This document shows positions 1,262 to 41,597 of a DNA stretch of 64,000 nucleotides, piece after piece. Numbering within the stretch: the first letter of the stretch is position 1; each line of letters starts with the position of its first letter. The stretch spans positions 1,650,136-1,714,135 of the forward strand of contig NZ_KE136481.1 of assembly GCF_000407185.1 (NCBI RefSeq), read 5' to 3'. The translations under genes and the position numbers were made by a program. Below the pieces are notes generated by a model. That model was not told where the DNA came from. It saw only the letters and a program-made list of their open reading frames with translations, and made no database searches. This DNA comes from Enterococcus malodoratus ATCC 43197. Lineage in GTDB: Bacteria > Bacillota > Bacilli > Lactobacillales > Enterococcaceae.

Positions 1262-1395
1262 AAAAAAGCGAATAAAAAAACGAGTTCTTTACGAACCCGC
1301 ACGTAGTATGACTATCCAAAAGATCAGTCATTAACTATCTAGCCCAGCGAGATGTTCGCGTAAGGCGAGAAGCGGGTGCTTCTGCTTTCATTTCT
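1262..1395 (-). promoter_or_regulatory. L20-type autoregulatory leader with attenuator
   Basis: Read on the minus strand, the leader carries AGCACCCGC (1372-1380) early and GTGCGGGTTC (1293-1302) late. ACCCGC and GCGGGT can pair, giving the long-range or alternative pairing typical of the Rfam L20_leader. The late arm can instead form a short hairpin with GAACTCG (1281-1287) followed by a T-run (1273-1280), an intrinsic terminator. Known biology: L20 binding favours termination before infC. Fits by sequence and position; no covariance model was run. Confidence 0.85.
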
Positions 1396-23496: not shown

Positions 23497-26139
23497 TTAA
23501 ATATTTTCCGGATCTACTTCGGGTGCTTTATGGAACTTGATCAATTCAGTCACAACAATCGGAACTATGGATAGCAAGATCGCAATTACCCAATGATTCA
23601 TGCTGATCGGAACAAGATAGAACAGTTCCTGAGTTTGCGGAATCAAAGCAATCGCTGTTGTGATCCCAAGCGCTAACCAAGCCATTTGTGCCAATGATTT
23701 GTTCGTTGCCAAATCGATTTTGAAGATCGATTTGCTGCTGCGTACATTAAAGACATGCAAGATCGACGAGAACGCCAACACTAGAAATGCCACTGTTTGA
23801 CCAACTTCTAAGCTTGGTGGTGTAAAGTAGCTGACATGCTCAACAAATGCCCCAATGTAAAAACCAATCAAAGTCACAACCGTAAAGATCGCAGCATTTA
23901 GACCGATCTTCTGCCATAACCCGCGAGCAAAGATTCCCTCATCACGAGGAATCGGTTTTTCATCCATGATTCCAGCTTCTGCCGGTTCTCTACCTAAGGC
24001 AAAACCTGGCAATCCATCGGCTACTACGTTAACAAACAACAATTGAACAGCTGTAAACGGTGCTCCCCAACCAAGCAGCATCGCAATGACTACGATAAAG
24101 ATCTCAGAGATATTACAGCTCAACAAGAAATTGATCGCTTTACGGATTCCTTGATAAACTGACCGTCCACGAGCTACCGCATCAACGATCGTCGCAAAAT
24201 TGTCATCGGTCAATACCATATCGGCCGCACCTTTGGCCACGTCCGTTCCGGTAATCCCCATTGCACAACCTACATCACTAGCTTTCAAAGCCGGCGCATC
24301 ATTTACGCCATCACCGGTCATCGCTACAACCGCACCTGTTCGTTGCCAAGATTTAACGATTCGGATCTTATCTTCCGGCGTCACTCGTGCATAAACAGAC
24401 AAGTTCTTCACTCGGCCGTCTAACTCTTCATCGGTCATTTTTTGCAGTTGAGCCCCAGAAATCGCTTCTTTACGACTCTTCATAATGCCAAGTTCTTTGG
24501 CGATCGCTCCAGCAGTTACAACATGGTCTCCTGTGATCATGACTGTTTTGATCCCTGCTTTTTTAGCACGCGCAATCGCGGCTTTTGATTCTGGACGCGG
24601 CGGATCGATCATTCCGATCAGACCCATCAAACGCAGATTCTTTTCCAACGCTTCCGAGGTAATTTCTTTCGGCTCTTCTTCATGGATCGCATAGCCCACA
24701 GCAATAACCCGCAAGGCTTTTTTCCCAAAGCGGTCATTAACAATCGCAGCCTGATCTACATCGCCATAATGAAATTTTGGTAGTAAAACATCGAAAGCAC
24801 CTTTAGTGATGGAAATAAATTTTTTCCCGCGCTTATGTACTGTCGTCATCATCTTTCGCTCAGAGTCGAAAGGTATTTCTCCAATTCGCGGATATTTTTC
24901 TTCCAATTCAGCTTTCGTATGGTAATTTTCTTCTACTGCACGAACAATCGCAGCTTCTGTCGGATTTCCTTTGATTTCCAATTCATTGTCATCATTTTCT
25001 ACAACAACATCGGTACACAAAGCCGCAATACTTAAGACTTCCATTGCCTCTTCCGTCATACCCTCTTCAGTATCTACGACAGAATCGCCATGCGTCCATA
25101 CTCGACGGACCCGCATTTTATTTTGTGTCAAGGTACCAGTTTTATCTGAACAAATGACATTGGCTGAACCAAGTGTTTCCACCGCAGGCAATCGACGAAT
25201 AATCGCATTTTTCTGTGCCATCTTCTGGACGCCAAATGCCAAAGTCAGTGTCACAATAACGGTCAATGTTTCCGGAACAGCGGCTACTGCTAAAGAAATC
25301 GCCGTGATGAACATATCCAACATTGGTTCGCCTTGCATCTCTCCGATGAAAAACACAAAAGCCGCAGCTGCCAAAGCGATCAAACTGATTCGTTTGCCTA
25401 ATTGATTTAATCGTTTTTGCAGAGGTGTTTTTTGATTTTCATCGCTATTTAAGAGTCCAGCAATCTTTCCCATCTCGGTTTCCATGCCCGTTGCAGTAAT
25501 AATCGCCTTACCGCGGCCATTGACTACAGTCGAACCTTTATAAAGCATATTCAAACGATCGCCTAATGCATCATCTGCTTCTCCCAGATATTCCGAGTCT
25601 TTCATGACTGGTTCGCTTTCACCTGTCAATGCTGATTCTTCCACTCGCAGCTGTGATGCTTCTGCAATACGAGCGTCAGCAGTAATCATCGAACCGGATT
25701 CCAGTAATAATGTATCTCCTGGTACTAATTCTTCAGCGTCAATCTCCTGCTGCTTACCGTCACGTATAACAGTGGCCGTTTGTTTGTTCATATCCTGTAA
25801 TGCGGATAATGCCTTTTCTGCATTGCCTTCTTGAACAATTGCTAAAACTGAGTTGATCACGACAATCGCAATGATCAAAAAGCTCTCAAAATAGTCGCCA
25901 TGATCAGTAGCAATCGCGGTGTACAGCGATATCACTGCTGCCACCAATAATATAATCGTAGTGAAATCCGTCAGACTATGGAAAAACTTTTTCGCCAATG
26001 ATTCCTTCGGCGCTTCTTCAAATTTATTTTTTCCGTTATTTTTTATTTTTTCTTCAACACTATTCTCTGTCAGTCCATTATCTAAATCAGCTTGATATTC
26101 ACTGATCACGGCATCAACCGTCTCTTTGTAGGGTTCCAT
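23497..26139 (-). CDS. cation-transporting P-type ATPase, Ca2+ (P2A) type
   Basis: Membrane pump of 880 residues. In order: N-terminal cation ATPase domain; TM1-2; A-domain with LTGESEPV; TM3-4 with VAAVPETLTVIVTL (the ion-binding Glu of the PEGL-type motif, here PETL); phosphorylation site CSDKTGTLTQNKM; N-domain; MTGDGVNDAPALKASDVG hinge; TM5-10, with NVVADGLPGFALGREP in TM6. The Glu in TM4 plus Asn and Asp in TM6 suit calcium or another divalent ion; Na+/K+ subtypes are less likely. ATG has AAGGAGG upstream and an extended -10 (TGTTATAGT) lies on the minus strand. Single gene. Confidence 0.92.
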   Translation of the reverse strand: MEPYKETVDAVISEYQADLDNGLTENSVEEKIKNNGKNKFEEAPKESLAKKFFHSLTDFTTIILLVAAVISLYTAIATDHGDYFESFLIIAIVVINSVLAIVQEGNAEKALSALQDMNKQTATVIRDGKQQEIDAEELVPGDTLLLESGSMITADARIAEASQLRVEESALTGESEPVMKDSEYLGEADDALGDRLNMLYKGSTVVNGRGKAIITATGMETEMGKIAGLLNSDENQKTPLQKRLNQLGKRISLIALAAAAFVFFIGEMQGEPMLDMFITAISLAVAAVPETLTVIVTLTLAFGVQKMAQKNAIIRRLPAVETLGSANVICSDKTGTLTQNKMRVRRVWTHGDSVVDTEEGMTEEAMEVLSIAALCTDVVVENDDNELEIKGNPTEAAIVRAVEENYHTKAELEEKYPRIGEIPFDSERKMMTTVHKRGKKFISITKGAFDVLLPKFHYGDVDQAAIVNDRFGKKALRVIAVGYAIHEEEPKEITSEALEKNLRLMGLIGMIDPPRPESKAAIARAKKAGIKTVMITGDHVVTAGAIAKELGIMKSRKEAISGAQLQKMTDEELDGRVKNLSVYARVTPEDKIRIVKSWQRTGAVVAMTGDGVNDAPALKASDVGCAMGITGTDVAKGAADMVLTDDNFATIVDAVARGRSVYQGIRKAINFLLSCNISEIFIVVIAMLLGWGAPFTAVQLLFVNVVADGLPGFALGREPAEAGIMDEKPIPRDEGIFARGLWQKIGLNAAIFTVVTLIGFYIGAFVEHVSYFTPPSLEVGQTVAFLVLAFSSILHVFNVRSSKSIFKIDLATNKSLAQMAWLALGITTAIALIPQTQELFYLVPISMNHWVIAILLSIVPIVVTELIKFHKAPEVDPENI

Positions 26140-26269: not shown

Positions 26270-26283
26270 TGTAATCGCTTCCA
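26270..26283 (+). promoter_or_regulatory. cre-like box over the ncRNA promoter
   Basis: TGTAATCGCTTCCA fits TGNNANCGNTNNCA at all fixed positions. It overlaps the weak -35 of the promoter at 26279-26307, so CcpA binding would block it. Confidence 0.55.
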
Positions 26284-26307
26284 AAAACTACTGAGTTGTG
26301 CTATATT
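26279..26307 (+). promoter_or_regulatory. promoter of the candidate ncRNA
   Basis: TTCCAA (26279-26284), 17 bases, then extended -10 TGCTATATT (26299-26307). The expected start, about 26314, is just before the first base of the closing helix at 26318. Confidence 0.7.
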
Positions 26308-26313
26308 ATAGAT

Positions 26314-26689
26314 ACAAGGAAGGAGGAACTTAGATCATTCGAAGGATTTCTCGATAAGAAAGTAGAAAAAAGTAAACAATAAAAATTGTTAGTAATACAA
26401 GATTCACCTAAAAGTTGTTAATAGTATGCGTGTGAAGTATTTCCTTATAAATAGTGAATGCGTATCACAGGTTGAGTAGTACATCAAACACACAAGTAAA
26501 AAGATACGTAAGTTAGAAAAGTTTCTTTAAAACTGAATAAAAGTGAAAACGTAGTAAAAACAAATATTTATGTTTATAGTCAAGAAATTCATGTAATACT
26601 TTGCATGTATCATAAAAGTAATATAAAATTCGAATGAACTAATCCTTCCGATATTCTAAGAGCCAGGCAGTCGAGAGCCTGGCTTTTTT
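26314..26689 (+). ncRNA. candidate structured non-coding RNA, about 375 nt
   Basis: A promoter, nested helices and a terminator define a stand-alone transcript with no convincing reading frame. Closing helix P1: GGAAGGA (26318-26324) with 26643-26649, TTAG (26330-26333) with 26639-26642, TCATTCGAA (26335-26343) with 26629-26637, 20 pairs in all with one 5-base bulge and one A/A mismatch. P2: GGATTTCTCGAT (26344-26355) with GTCAAGAAATTC (26579-26590), 11 of 12 positions. A hairpin 26591-26613 fills the 3' side. P3: TGCGTATC (26459-26466) with GATACGTA (26503-26510). A small hairpin AACAAT/ATTGTT is at 26375-26390. The terminator is at 26661-26689. It is not tmRNA, RNase P, 6S or SRP RNA by sequence, as far as I can tell. 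A cre-like box overlaps its promoter. Confidence 0.75.
26661..26689 (+). terminator. intrinsic terminator of the ncRNA
   Basis: AGCCAGGC, 8-base loop, GCCTGGCT, TTTTTT. The T-run is on the plus strand only, which fixes the direction of the transcript. Confidence 0.92.
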
Positions 26690-26697
26690 GCTGCTCA

Positions 26698-26730
26698 GAA
26701 AGGCCAACGAAAAAATTCGTTGGCCTTTCT
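26698..26730 (-). terminator. hairpin after queA
   Basis: GAAAGGCCAACGAA and its perfect complement around a short A-rich loop. The T-tract on the minus side is short, so it may need help to terminate. Confidence 0.75.
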
Positions 26731-26734
26731 TCTA

Positions 26735-27766
26735 TTATTTAACAAACATTGCATCGCCAAAGCTGAAGAAACGATACCGTTCTTCAATCGCATGATGGTA
26801 AGCAGCTAATGTTTCTTCGCGTCCCGCAAATGCACTCACTAACATTACTAAAGTTGATTTAGGTAAATGAAAGTTCGTCGAAAAGGCTTGGACAATTTTA
26901 AACTCATATCCCGGCGTAATAAAGATATCGGTCCAACCGCTGTCGGCCTTAATCTCGCCATCGAATTTCGTTCCGATTGTTTCCAAAGTACGGATCGAAG
27001 TGGTTCCAACCGCAATGATTTTCCCGCCAGCAGCACGAACATCATTCAATTGAGCCGCTGCTTCTTCCGTCAAACGATAGAATTCACTATGCATTTGATG
27101 TTCGGAAATATTGTCTACACTGACAGGGCGGAAGGTTCCCAGTCCAACATGCAATGTCAAATAGACCAACTTCACACCCTTTGCTGCAATTCTTTCTAGT
27201 AGTTCGGGGGTAAAATGCAACCCTGCAGTCGGAGCTGCTGCCGAACCGTTCTCTTTTGCATAAACAGTTTGATAACGTTCTGGATCTTCCAAGCGCTCTT
27301 TGATATAAGGCGGCAACGGCATTTCACCTAGTGATTCCAAATTCTCTAAGAAAATACCTTCATAAGTAAATTCCACGATTCGTCCGCCGTGCTCCAGTTC
27401 TTCCATAACTTCTGCTCGCAAACGACCATCACCAAAGACGATCTGAGTACCGACTTTTGCCCGACGTGCAGGCTTAATCAAGGTCTCCCATTCATCTCCT
27501 TGTGTGTTGTTCAGCAGCAAGACTTCTAGATGACCTCCCGTTTCAGGCTTTTCTCCATACAAACGAGCCGGTAAAACGCGTGTGTCATTCATGACTAGAG
27601 CGTCCCCAGGATTCAACTCCTCAAGGATCTCATCAAAATGCTTATCTGAAATATGACCCGTTTCTCGATCTAAGACTAGCAATCGTGAACTGTCGCGCTT
27701 TTCTAGAGGGGTCTGGGCAATTAATTCTTCTGGTAAATCAAAATCAAAATCTTCTGTGGTTAACAT
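26735..27766 (-). CDS. queA: S-adenosylmethionine:tRNA ribosyltransferase-isomerase
   Basis: Adds the ribosyl moiety of SAM to preQ1-34 in tRNA and rearranges it to epoxyqueuosine, the step after Tgt. The 343 residues contain the family landmarks [14 protein letters not shown], the RLLVLDR region, [25 protein letters not shown] and [15 protein letters not shown] has GAGGAGA 6 bases upstream. It lies on the same strand as tgt and yajC but is separated from them by three unrelated units. Confidence 0.97.
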
Positions 27767-37059: not shown

Positions 37060-37073
37060 TGAAAACGATTACA
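37060..37073. promoter_or_regulatory. cre site (CcpA box)
   Basis: TGAAAACGATTACA matches TGWAANCGNTNWCA at every position. It lies 9 bases upstream of the -35 of the PTS operon and about 55 bases upstream of the divergent aldolase promoter. Confidence 0.85.
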
Positions 37074-40955: not shown

Positions 40956-41597
40956 TTATTGTCCATAACTTGGAAAACGTTTGTGCACCTTAGCCATATC
41001 CGCCTCAGCTAATATCACCGGATCGCCTAAAAGCGAAGCTCCCACGTGGAGTCCTGCCAAGCGTTCAATTTCACTCGCCACTGAAAAAGCCTCTTTTAAT
41101 GTCGGTCCGCATGTCAGCAGCCCATGATTTGCTAGAAAGCAGGCATAGCGATCAATCATCGCTTCAAAGGCATACTCTGCCAACTCCTCTGTACCAAACG
41201 TTGCATATTTTGAGCAACGAACATCATTACCGCCTGCAATCGCTATCATATAATTGGTCGCTGGCAGATCTTTCCGACAGGTGGCAAGGATCGAACTAAA
41301 TGTCGAATGGGCATGGACTACTGCACGAATCTCATTTCCGCGTTTTTGATAATTGATCAAATGCATTTGCCACTCACTGGATGGTTTACGCTTTCCTTCA
41401 ATGATTTCCCCCGCAAGATTCAGTAATACGACATCCTCCTCAGTCATCTCAAAATAATCGATCCCACTCGGTGTAATTGCCATCAATTGCTTTTCCGGAT
41501 CATAGATACTAATATTTCCTCCAGTTCCCGCCGTCAGCCCTGTCGAGATTAACTTCTTACCATACTCAACCAGCAACGCTTTTTCCTTATCCATCAT
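40956..41597 (-). CDS. class II aldolase family protein, second copy
   Basis: A 213-residue zinc aldolase/epimerase. GTGGNISIYD and TPSGIDYFEM form the phosphate site, ligands lie in VHAHSTFSS and ANHGLLTCG, and the acidic residue in PSSEWQMHL. I start at the first of two adjacent ATG codons (41597), 9 bases after AAAGGGG; the longer frame lacks a binding site. Only moderately similar to the copy at 37185, it is closer to the fuculose/rhamnulose aldolase type. Co-transcribed with the 2-hydroxyacid dehydrogenase. Confidence 0.88.
   Translation of the reverse strand: MMDKEKALLVEYGKKLISTGLTAGTGGNISIYDPEKQLMAITPSGIDYFEMTEEDVVLLNLAGEIIEGKRKPSSEWQMHLINYQKRGNEIRAVVHAHSTFSSILATCRKDLPATNYMIAIAGGNDVRCSKYATFGTEELAEYAFEAMIDRYACFLANHGLLTCGPTLKEAFSVASEIERLAGLHVGASLLGDPVILAEADMAKVHKRFPSYGQ

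What the first reader, a model, noticed from the sequence alone, without database searches (positions are those of the whole stretch)
26314..26689. Candidate new structured non-coding RNA with an interrupted 20-bp closing helix
An extended -10 promoter, a helix that joins the two ends (7+4+9 pairs), a second nested helix (11 of 12), a 3'-side hairpin, an inner 8-bp helix and a strong one-directional terminator fit together over about 375 nt. The expected 5' end falls 4 bases before the closing helix. No convincing reading frame is present, and the AGGAGG at 26321-26326 lies in the helix with no suitable start codon after it. Size and closed architecture recall large ornate RNAs (such as ROOL, GOLLD or raiA), but I could not match it to any family.
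Basis: partly seen in the sequence, partly recalled or inferred. Interest (0 to 1): 0.85.

Follow-up and report, generated by a model that had tools for sequence, protein, structure and literature searches.

The report
Known-family enterococcal regulatory RNA, knotted
This is a real, folded, non-coding RNA about 375 bases long that is the counterpart of regulatory RNAs already known from two related gut bacteria; what looks new is a shared knotted fold and a conserved sugar-control site in front of the gene.

Summary
In detail: 26314-26689 (+) is a structured non-coding RNA gene with promoter, closing helix, inner helices and terminator. It is not a new RNA. It is the counterpart, in an avium-group Enterococcus, of E. 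faecium Ern0160 and E. faecalis Ref19C/EF0869_EF0870 (Rfam RF02639): same queA/P-type-ATPase gap, same orientation, sequence similarity significant through intermediates. Rfam misses it because RF02639 demands 533 bits and the match scores 10.5. A core model finds one copy in each of 67 of 105 Enterococcaceae genomes (a lower bound) and one outside the family, also beside queA. Compensatory changes support the closing helix. Added here: a 16-bp helix P3 that crosses P2 (pseudoknot or switch), a covarying P4, and a possible contact between the P2 strand and the terminator loop. A CcpA-type cre site with at most 2 mismatches lies in 41 of 43 scored upstreams, at essentially two spacings 10 bp apart; E. 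faecalis, whose RNA is published as starvation-specific, is among them. Best reading: a CcpA-repressed, pseudoknotted, base-pairing sRNA. CcpA control and the pseudoknot are inferred. The LysM targets published for E. faecium are not predicted for the window's species.

The parts
26270..26283 (+). cre-like site TGTAATCGCTTCCA (CcpA box), centred about 36 bases before the RNA start
   Evidence: Perfect match to the recalled consensus TGWNANCGNTNNCA; in 43 scored homologous upstreams 34 have <=1 mismatch (0.24 expected) and 41 have <=2 (3.4 expected)
26299..26307 (+). extended -10 promoter element TGC-TATATT; no good -35
   Evidence: Sequence; conserved in the homologous upstreams listed; not listed by the scan
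26312..26689 (+). the RNA, start 26312-26314 to terminator Ts; orthologue of Ern0160 / Ref19C
   Evidence: for homology; 5' end from the RF02639 start
26318..26343 (+). P1, 5' arm (26318-324, 26330-333, 26335-343)
   Evidence: Pairs with 26629-26649; 11 of 13 pairs of P1b/c have changes on both sides, P1a 0 of 7; arms of different sequence pair in other clades
26344..26355 (+). P2, 5' arm; holds CUCGA 26350-26354, possible partner of the terminator loop (P7)
   Evidence: 96.1% and 92.0% of cells paired in its two stretches, no change on both sides; P7:
26382..26407 (+). conserved island AAA(A/G)UUGUUAG...ACAAGAUUCAC; candidate seed, with UUCAC (26403-407) possibly pairing 26454-458 (P6)
   Evidence: Conserved through the homologues; best predicted LysM pairing of an E. 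faecium-type RNA lies here
26426..26441 (+). P3, 5' arm (16 bp with 26595-26610), crosses P2
   Evidence: 99.7% of cells paired for 14 pairs, 86.3% for the inner two; 3 of 16 pairs change on both sides; chosen by RNAalifold on 39 sequences
26459..26466 (+). P4, 5' arm (8 bp with 26503-26510)
   Evidence: 97.6% paired, 5 of 8 pairs change on both sides
26503..26510 (+). P4, 3' arm
26558..26575 (+). P5 hairpin (26558-562/571-575)
   Evidence: 99.2% paired, no change on both sides
26579..26590 (+). P2, 3' arm
26595..26610 (+). P3, 3' arm
26629..26649 (+). P1, 3' arm (26629-637, 26639-642, 26643-649)
26658..26689 (+). intrinsic terminator; loop holds UCGAG 26671-26675
   Evidence: 96.5% paired, 6 of 11 pairs change on both sides
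23497..26139 (-). neighbour: calcium-type P-type ATPase gene, divergent from the RNA
   Evidence: ORF; beside the RNA in 40 of 46 distinct homologous RNAs
26735..27766 (-). neighbour: queA, convergent with the RNA
   Evidence: ORF; in the fetched stretch of 30 of 46 distinct homologous RNAs

Best explanation
The locus is the orthologue of the sRNA family Ern0160 (E. faecium) / Ref19C (E. faecalis). While good sugars are present, CcpA at the cre over the -35/spacer region blocks an extended -10 promoter (inferred). When they run out the RNA accumulates (shown by others for E. faecalis in starvation, not here). It folds with its ends closed by P1 around a core in which P2 and P3 cross (P1, P3 and P4 supported by covariation; P2 by conservation only; simultaneous P2 and P3 inferred), leaving an invariant AAAGUUGUUAG island exposed. 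That island pairs with mRNAs near or just inside the coding start and lowers their level: repression of two LysM mRNAs by direct pairing is shown by others in E. faecium; that this island is the part used is my prediction. Targets differ between species (inferred).
For: Orthology: gap and orientation as published, E. faecalis-type RF02639 locus hits the family HMM at 1.7e-23, RF02639 hits E. faecium-group genomes at up to 4e-16. Non-coding. Fold. Control: cre in 41 of 43 upstreams with <=2 mismatches, spacing locked to the RNA promoter, kept in L139 where no ATPase gene was found beside it; starvation-specific Northern in E. faecalis; carbohydrate genes most reduced when Ern0160 is overproduced; precedents RsaI and LAB 6S RNA. 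Pairing: published LysM repression; my best predicted site in an E. faecium-type genome lies in the ORF and uses the conserved island, rank 1 of 17 ORFs.
Against: No CcpA binding or glucose test exists in what I read; other LacI-type regulators read similar boxes. Two upstreams (L011, L063) scored 3 mismatches and L062 lacks the central CG. P2 has no double change, and P7 would use part of the P2 strand. LysM pairing is not predicted for the window's species: three LysM genes of seven ranked 58th, 64th and 67th of 67 ORFs, and of four scanned in full none used the island (best -12.6 net, at the 3' arm). The margin in the E. faecium-type test is small (-14.7 against -13.9), and the twin genes differ by 9 nt there against 15 nt in the paper. 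Seed-complement sites in the genome are not clearly more than in the control (3 non-self against 1).
Confidence: 0.66

Rival explanations
1. The RNA acts mainly through its tertiary fold, as a protein- or ribosome-binding or scaffold RNA, and mRNA pairing is a side activity.
For: Invariant islands, crossing helices and a possible terminator-loop contact are more than a simple antisense sRNA needs; published Grad-seq shows Ern0160 also in heavy fractions.
Against: The published direct repression depends on a 13-nt pairing stretch; no protein partner was found in that study; no Rfam large-RNA family matches.
Confidence: 0.2
2. A cis-acting RNA that regulates queA or the ATPase gene beside it.
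For: Long-lasting neighbourhood: ATPase in 40 and queA in 30 of 46 distinct RNAs.
Against: The RNA ends before queA begins to overlap and points away from the ATPase gene; L139 keeps queA but has a tgt gene on the other side; L027 in another genus has neither gene in its stretch; 3 of 46 have neither.
Confidence: 0.05
3. A 5' region or small mRNA with a short conserved peptide.
For: SD-like GGAGGA near the 5' end.
Against: No ORF of 30 aa or more in six frames; GGAGGA lost in some homologues that keep P1 pairing; indels throughout; authors of PMC12870237 found no ORF in Ern0160.
Confidence: 0.02
4. A member of a known large RNA class (ROOL, GOLLD, raiA) or a 6S-type RNA.
For: Size and closed ends; LAB 6S genes also carry cre boxes.
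Against: No Rfam match to these families at gathering score or E <= 10.
Confidence: 0.02

Closest known systems
Ern0160 of E. faecium (PMC12870237, four of six parts read plus passages; PMC8631354, passages)
   Same: Place between queA and the P-type ATPase gene, length (362-370 nt published), no ORF, terminator; RNAs of the E. faecium group match the family HMM and core model
   Different: The paper does not mention CcpA and its passages on structure show only a single-sequence prediction; LysM targeting not predicted in the window's species
Ref19C = EF0869_EF0870/EF0871 of E. faecalis, Rfam RF02639 (PMC3166299, passages)
   Same: Place, orientation, 5' end within 2 nt, P1 and P3 pairing, island, cre
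   Different: P2, CUCGA and the UCGAG loop absent; annotated 474 nt runs about 100 nt past a terminator-like hairpin; RF02639 scores the window at 10.5 bits against a cut-off of 533
RsaI of S. aureus (PMC9266662, passages)
   Same: CcpA-repressed sRNA made when glucose runs out, as a model of how this RNA may be controlled
   Different: 111 nt in that review's table; no homology tested or claimed
6S RNA of lactic acid bacteria (PMC8414754, passages)
   Different: No Rfam 6S match here

Membership tests
Ern0160/Ref19C sRNA family | Place between queA and the P-type ATPase gene, transcribed away from the ATPase gene | tested here: met
Ern0160/Ref19C sRNA family | Sequence homology to the E. faecalis and E. 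faecium-group RNAs | tested here: met
   Family HMM: E. faecalis-type locus 1.7e-23; E. lactis L048 and E. durans L044 1e-66 to 1e-68 (such RNAs were not in the HMM seed except L022-L026 relatives)
Ern0160/Ref19C sRNA family | About 370 nt, no ORF, own terminator | tested here: met
Ern0160/Ref19C sRNA family | Accumulation late in growth or in starvation | not testable with these tools
   Only published data for relatives
Ern0160/Ref19C sRNA family | Direct pairing with LysM mRNAs | tested here: not met
   Predicted pairing only: E. faecium-type yes, window's species no. It is a target of one member, not a defining feature of the RNA; no experiment here
Rfam RF02639 | Score above the gathering cut-off of 533 bits | tested here: not met
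   10.5 bits, E 3.1, full length 1-474; only 1 of 105 family genomes passes
ROOL, GOLLD, raiA, 6S | Match to the Rfam covariance model | tested here: not met
CcpA-repressed sRNA (works like RsaI) | cre over the core promoter | tested here: met
CcpA-repressed sRNA (works like RsaI) | Rise on loss of CcpA or glucose | not testable with these tools
   Needs RNA measurements

The most novel reading that the evidence does not exclude
Ern0160, Ref19C and their relatives (46 distinct sequences) form one lineage-wide pseudoknotted RNA under catabolite control, whose invariant core rather than any one mRNA pairing is its main business, with the terminator loop docking back on the 5' domain so that the fold is locked only once transcription is complete.
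Probability: 0.25. Interest if true: 0.72.

Novelty: new member of a known kind. Interest (0 to 1): 0.5.

Why it matters
The two best-studied enterococcal species each have a named sRNA at this place, described in print as sharing 24% identity, over a 113-nt region. The comparison here shows one family with a shared fold, a testable regulator (CcpA) and a candidate seed, and it shows that Rfam's entry is too narrow and probably too long. If CcpA control is right, it ties sugar exhaustion to an RNA that others link to gut colonisation and virulence.

Tried and rejected
Rfam at gathering score and at E <= 10 gave no informative hit; I judge the VqmR, rli38 and BTnc060 matches to rest on terminators and AT-rich stretches. 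Phage and plasmid collections: no match. A first pair count used one bracket type for P2 and P3, which mis-paired them; redone with separate brackets. A local hairpin AUAC/GUAU at 26596-26609 was rejected because it breaks in L023, L044 and L057, where P3-type pairing holds (read). Whole-length duplex energies were uninformative and that script timed out; replaced by windowed scans with accessibility. Seed-complement pattern in the own genome: 3 non-self sites against 1 for the reversed control; one lies 51 nt inside a tilS-like gene; not pursued. The Grad-seq paper PMC10117718 has no passage with the RNA's names that I used; PMC7724050 none for the names used and PMC5593968 only two general passages on conservation; PMC9748033 shows the RNA's name only in its reference list. 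Flaws in my own scripts: four of 39 rows (L023, L070, L059, L041) were cut at a wrong 3' motif and say nothing on P1, and among the other 35 some pair with shifts or bulges (L013, L019, L025); three printed gaps to the -10 (L006, L010, L017) come from a pattern that hit an earlier TG; three rows (L018, L043, L070) had the terminator misplaced or not found. The first 26 RNAs were extracted by way of the ATPase gene, so their neighbourhood is no independent count; of the first 30 loci 28 had an ATPase hit.

Full report
Check of the observation. On the + strand, between a P-type ATPase gene (23497-26139, -) and queA (26735-27766, -), the window holds an extended -10 promoter, a closing helix of 7+4+9 pairs, an 11-of-12 helix, an inner 8-bp helix and a terminator, as described. 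The strand folds better than its shuffles (z = -4.99, 0 of 100), and no ORF of 30 aa or more lies inside it. The promoter and terminator scan did not list these two sites; the promoter rests on conservation and on the E. faecalis-type start, the terminator on its six pairs with double changes.

What it is. A DNA search of 60 relatives gave matches in 28, including all 20 genomes of the genus, the own one counted. A pattern scan of named genomes gave 53 stretches, of which 39 hold the RNA by HMM, nearly all from Enterococcus records; the other 14 do not. RF02639 passes its cut-off in one genome of 105, which I take to be E. faecalis; that locus matches the window-family HMM at E = 1.7e-23, and RF02639 below its cut-off reaches 25 of the 105, not the own genome. 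Of 46 distinct RNAs, 40 have the ATPase gene and 30 have queA in the stretch held, 27 both, 3 neither (L080, L063, L035). PMC12870237 (four of six parts read, and passages) places Ern0160 between queA and the ATPase gene and likens it to Ref19C in the same place. PMC3166299 (passages) gives Ref19C = EF0869_EF0871, 474 nt, pointing away from the ATPase gene. The window RNA is therefore their orthologue.

Distribution. A covariance model of the core (130 positions) finds one match in each of 67 of 105 Enterococcaceae genomes, in 8 of 17 genera. This is a lower bound: L027 (genus g12, missed by the model) shows on reading the cre, the promoter, AAGGAAGGAG and the island on its reverse strand, with neither neighbour gene found in 3 kb. 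In 395 genomes of the order the model finds 47, of which 46 are in the family. The 47th (G288, E = 3.9e-4) is real on inspection: cre, promoter, islands, arms that pair as P1 and a UCGAG terminator loop, next to queA but with a tgt-type gene on the other side.

Structure. On alignment A1 (26 sequences) 76 named pairs are 97.0% paired; 25 pairs change on both sides (shuffles 9.1); slid versions reach 30.0-47.6% paired. Support is uneven: P1b/c 11 of 13 pairs with double changes, P4 5 of 8, terminator 6 of 11, P3 3 of 16, and none in P1a, P2, P5 and P6. Related sequences inflate such counts. P1 arms of quite different sequence still pair in other clades, in the E. faecalis-type RNA (UCAAUUGGUUGAA with UUCAACCAAUUGA) and in L139. 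P3 (26426-441/595-610) crosses P2 (26344-355/579-590), so either a pseudoknot or two alternative states exist; RNAalifold on 39 sequences keeps P3 and not P2. CUCGA in the P2 strand and UCGAG in the terminator loop are both present in 40 of 49 distinct RNAs by script. Three more (L018, L043, L070) have both on reading. Two (L015, L016) have a one-letter change in the 5' element that still pairs by a wobble. Four (L084, L047, L061, L077) lack both. This joint absence, perhaps two losses, favours a contact P7; because P7 uses part of the P2 strand, P2 may shorten to six pairs.

Promoter control. The recalled cre consensus TGWNANCGNTNNCA matches perfectly at 26270-26283 (4 matches in the window, 1.2 expected). 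Of 44 distinct upstreams (L035 and L039 dropped before the count) 43 could be scored: 9 have 0, 25 have 1, 7 have 2 and 2 have 3 mismatches; Markov shuffles expect 0.24 with <=1 and 3.4 with <=2. Among the 41 with <=2 the site ends 32 nt (19 cases) or 22 nt (21 cases) before AAGG; in the E. faecalis-type locus it is 18, because four bases of the RNA start are missing. The two placements differ by 10 bp, one helical turn. Sites over the core promoter are said to repress (PMC8414754, passages). Ref19C is reported by Northern as specific to 24 h starvation. The word CcpA does not occur in the main text of PMC12870237. Two library searches joining CcpA with enterococcal sRNA or ncRNA listed 20 and 3 papers; no listed title names this RNA (listings only, apart from PMC8414754 and PMC9266662, of which I saw passages).

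Targets. In an E. faecium-type genome (unnamed) two near-twin LysM genes (205 and 208 aa, 95.3% identical DNA over 704 nt) have as best predicted pairing the RNA's nt 50-80 with bases +18 to +52 of the gene, -14.5 kcal/mol net for the best sub-site. The site holds the family's conserved AAAGUUGUUAG island. It ranks first of 17 ORFs with a small margin (-14.7 against -13.9). It resembles the published site (inside the ORF, about 40 nt, same in both genes), but that figure is not held, and the twins differ by 9 nt here against 15 nt in the paper. In the window's genome 7 LysM matches exist; four were scanned in full and none uses the island, and the three that the start-region ranking covered come 58th, 64th and 67th of 67. 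LysM targeting is thus not predicted to be shared.

Reading. Shown here: orthology, lack of ORF, covariation of P1, P3 and P4, conservation of the cre. Shown by others in relatives: transcription, starvation expression, LysM repression. Inferred: CcpA repression, the island as seed, P2 and P3 together in the cell, P7. Interest is moderate: the RNA is known, but its family-wide fold and cre were not found stated in the searches made (subscription papers are mostly not held).

Noticed in passing
window 1266-1393 (-): Ribosomal protein L20 leader (RF00558, 66 bits), the only Rfam hit at gathering score in the window.
   Followed up: no
L084 (E. faecalis-type RF02639 locus): RF02639's 474 nt run about 100 nt past a terminator-like hairpin and end just inside the start of a Cro/CI-like gene, so the Rfam entry is probably too long.
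   Followed up: partly
window 37060-37073 and 41235-41248: Two further places with perfect matches to the cre consensus, the first a near palindrome that matches on both strands.
   Followed up: no
L139: A homologue outside Enterococcaceae (same order, genome G288) beside queA with a tgt-type gene in place of the ATPase gene; the RNA may be older than the ATPase neighbourhood.
   Followed up: partly
L027: Divergent homologue in another Enterococcaceae genus, with cre and promoter, away from both usual neighbours.
   Followed up: partly
L093: The RNA's nt 78-97 are predicted to pair over the start codon of a LacI-type regulator gene (MKITIKEVAQMAGVS) near a LysM gene, -12.5 kcal/mol net, fifth of 67 ORFs; a weak target lead.
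   Followed up: no
window 26697-26730: A separate 15-bp hairpin between the RNA terminator and queA, probably the queA terminator.
   Followed up: no
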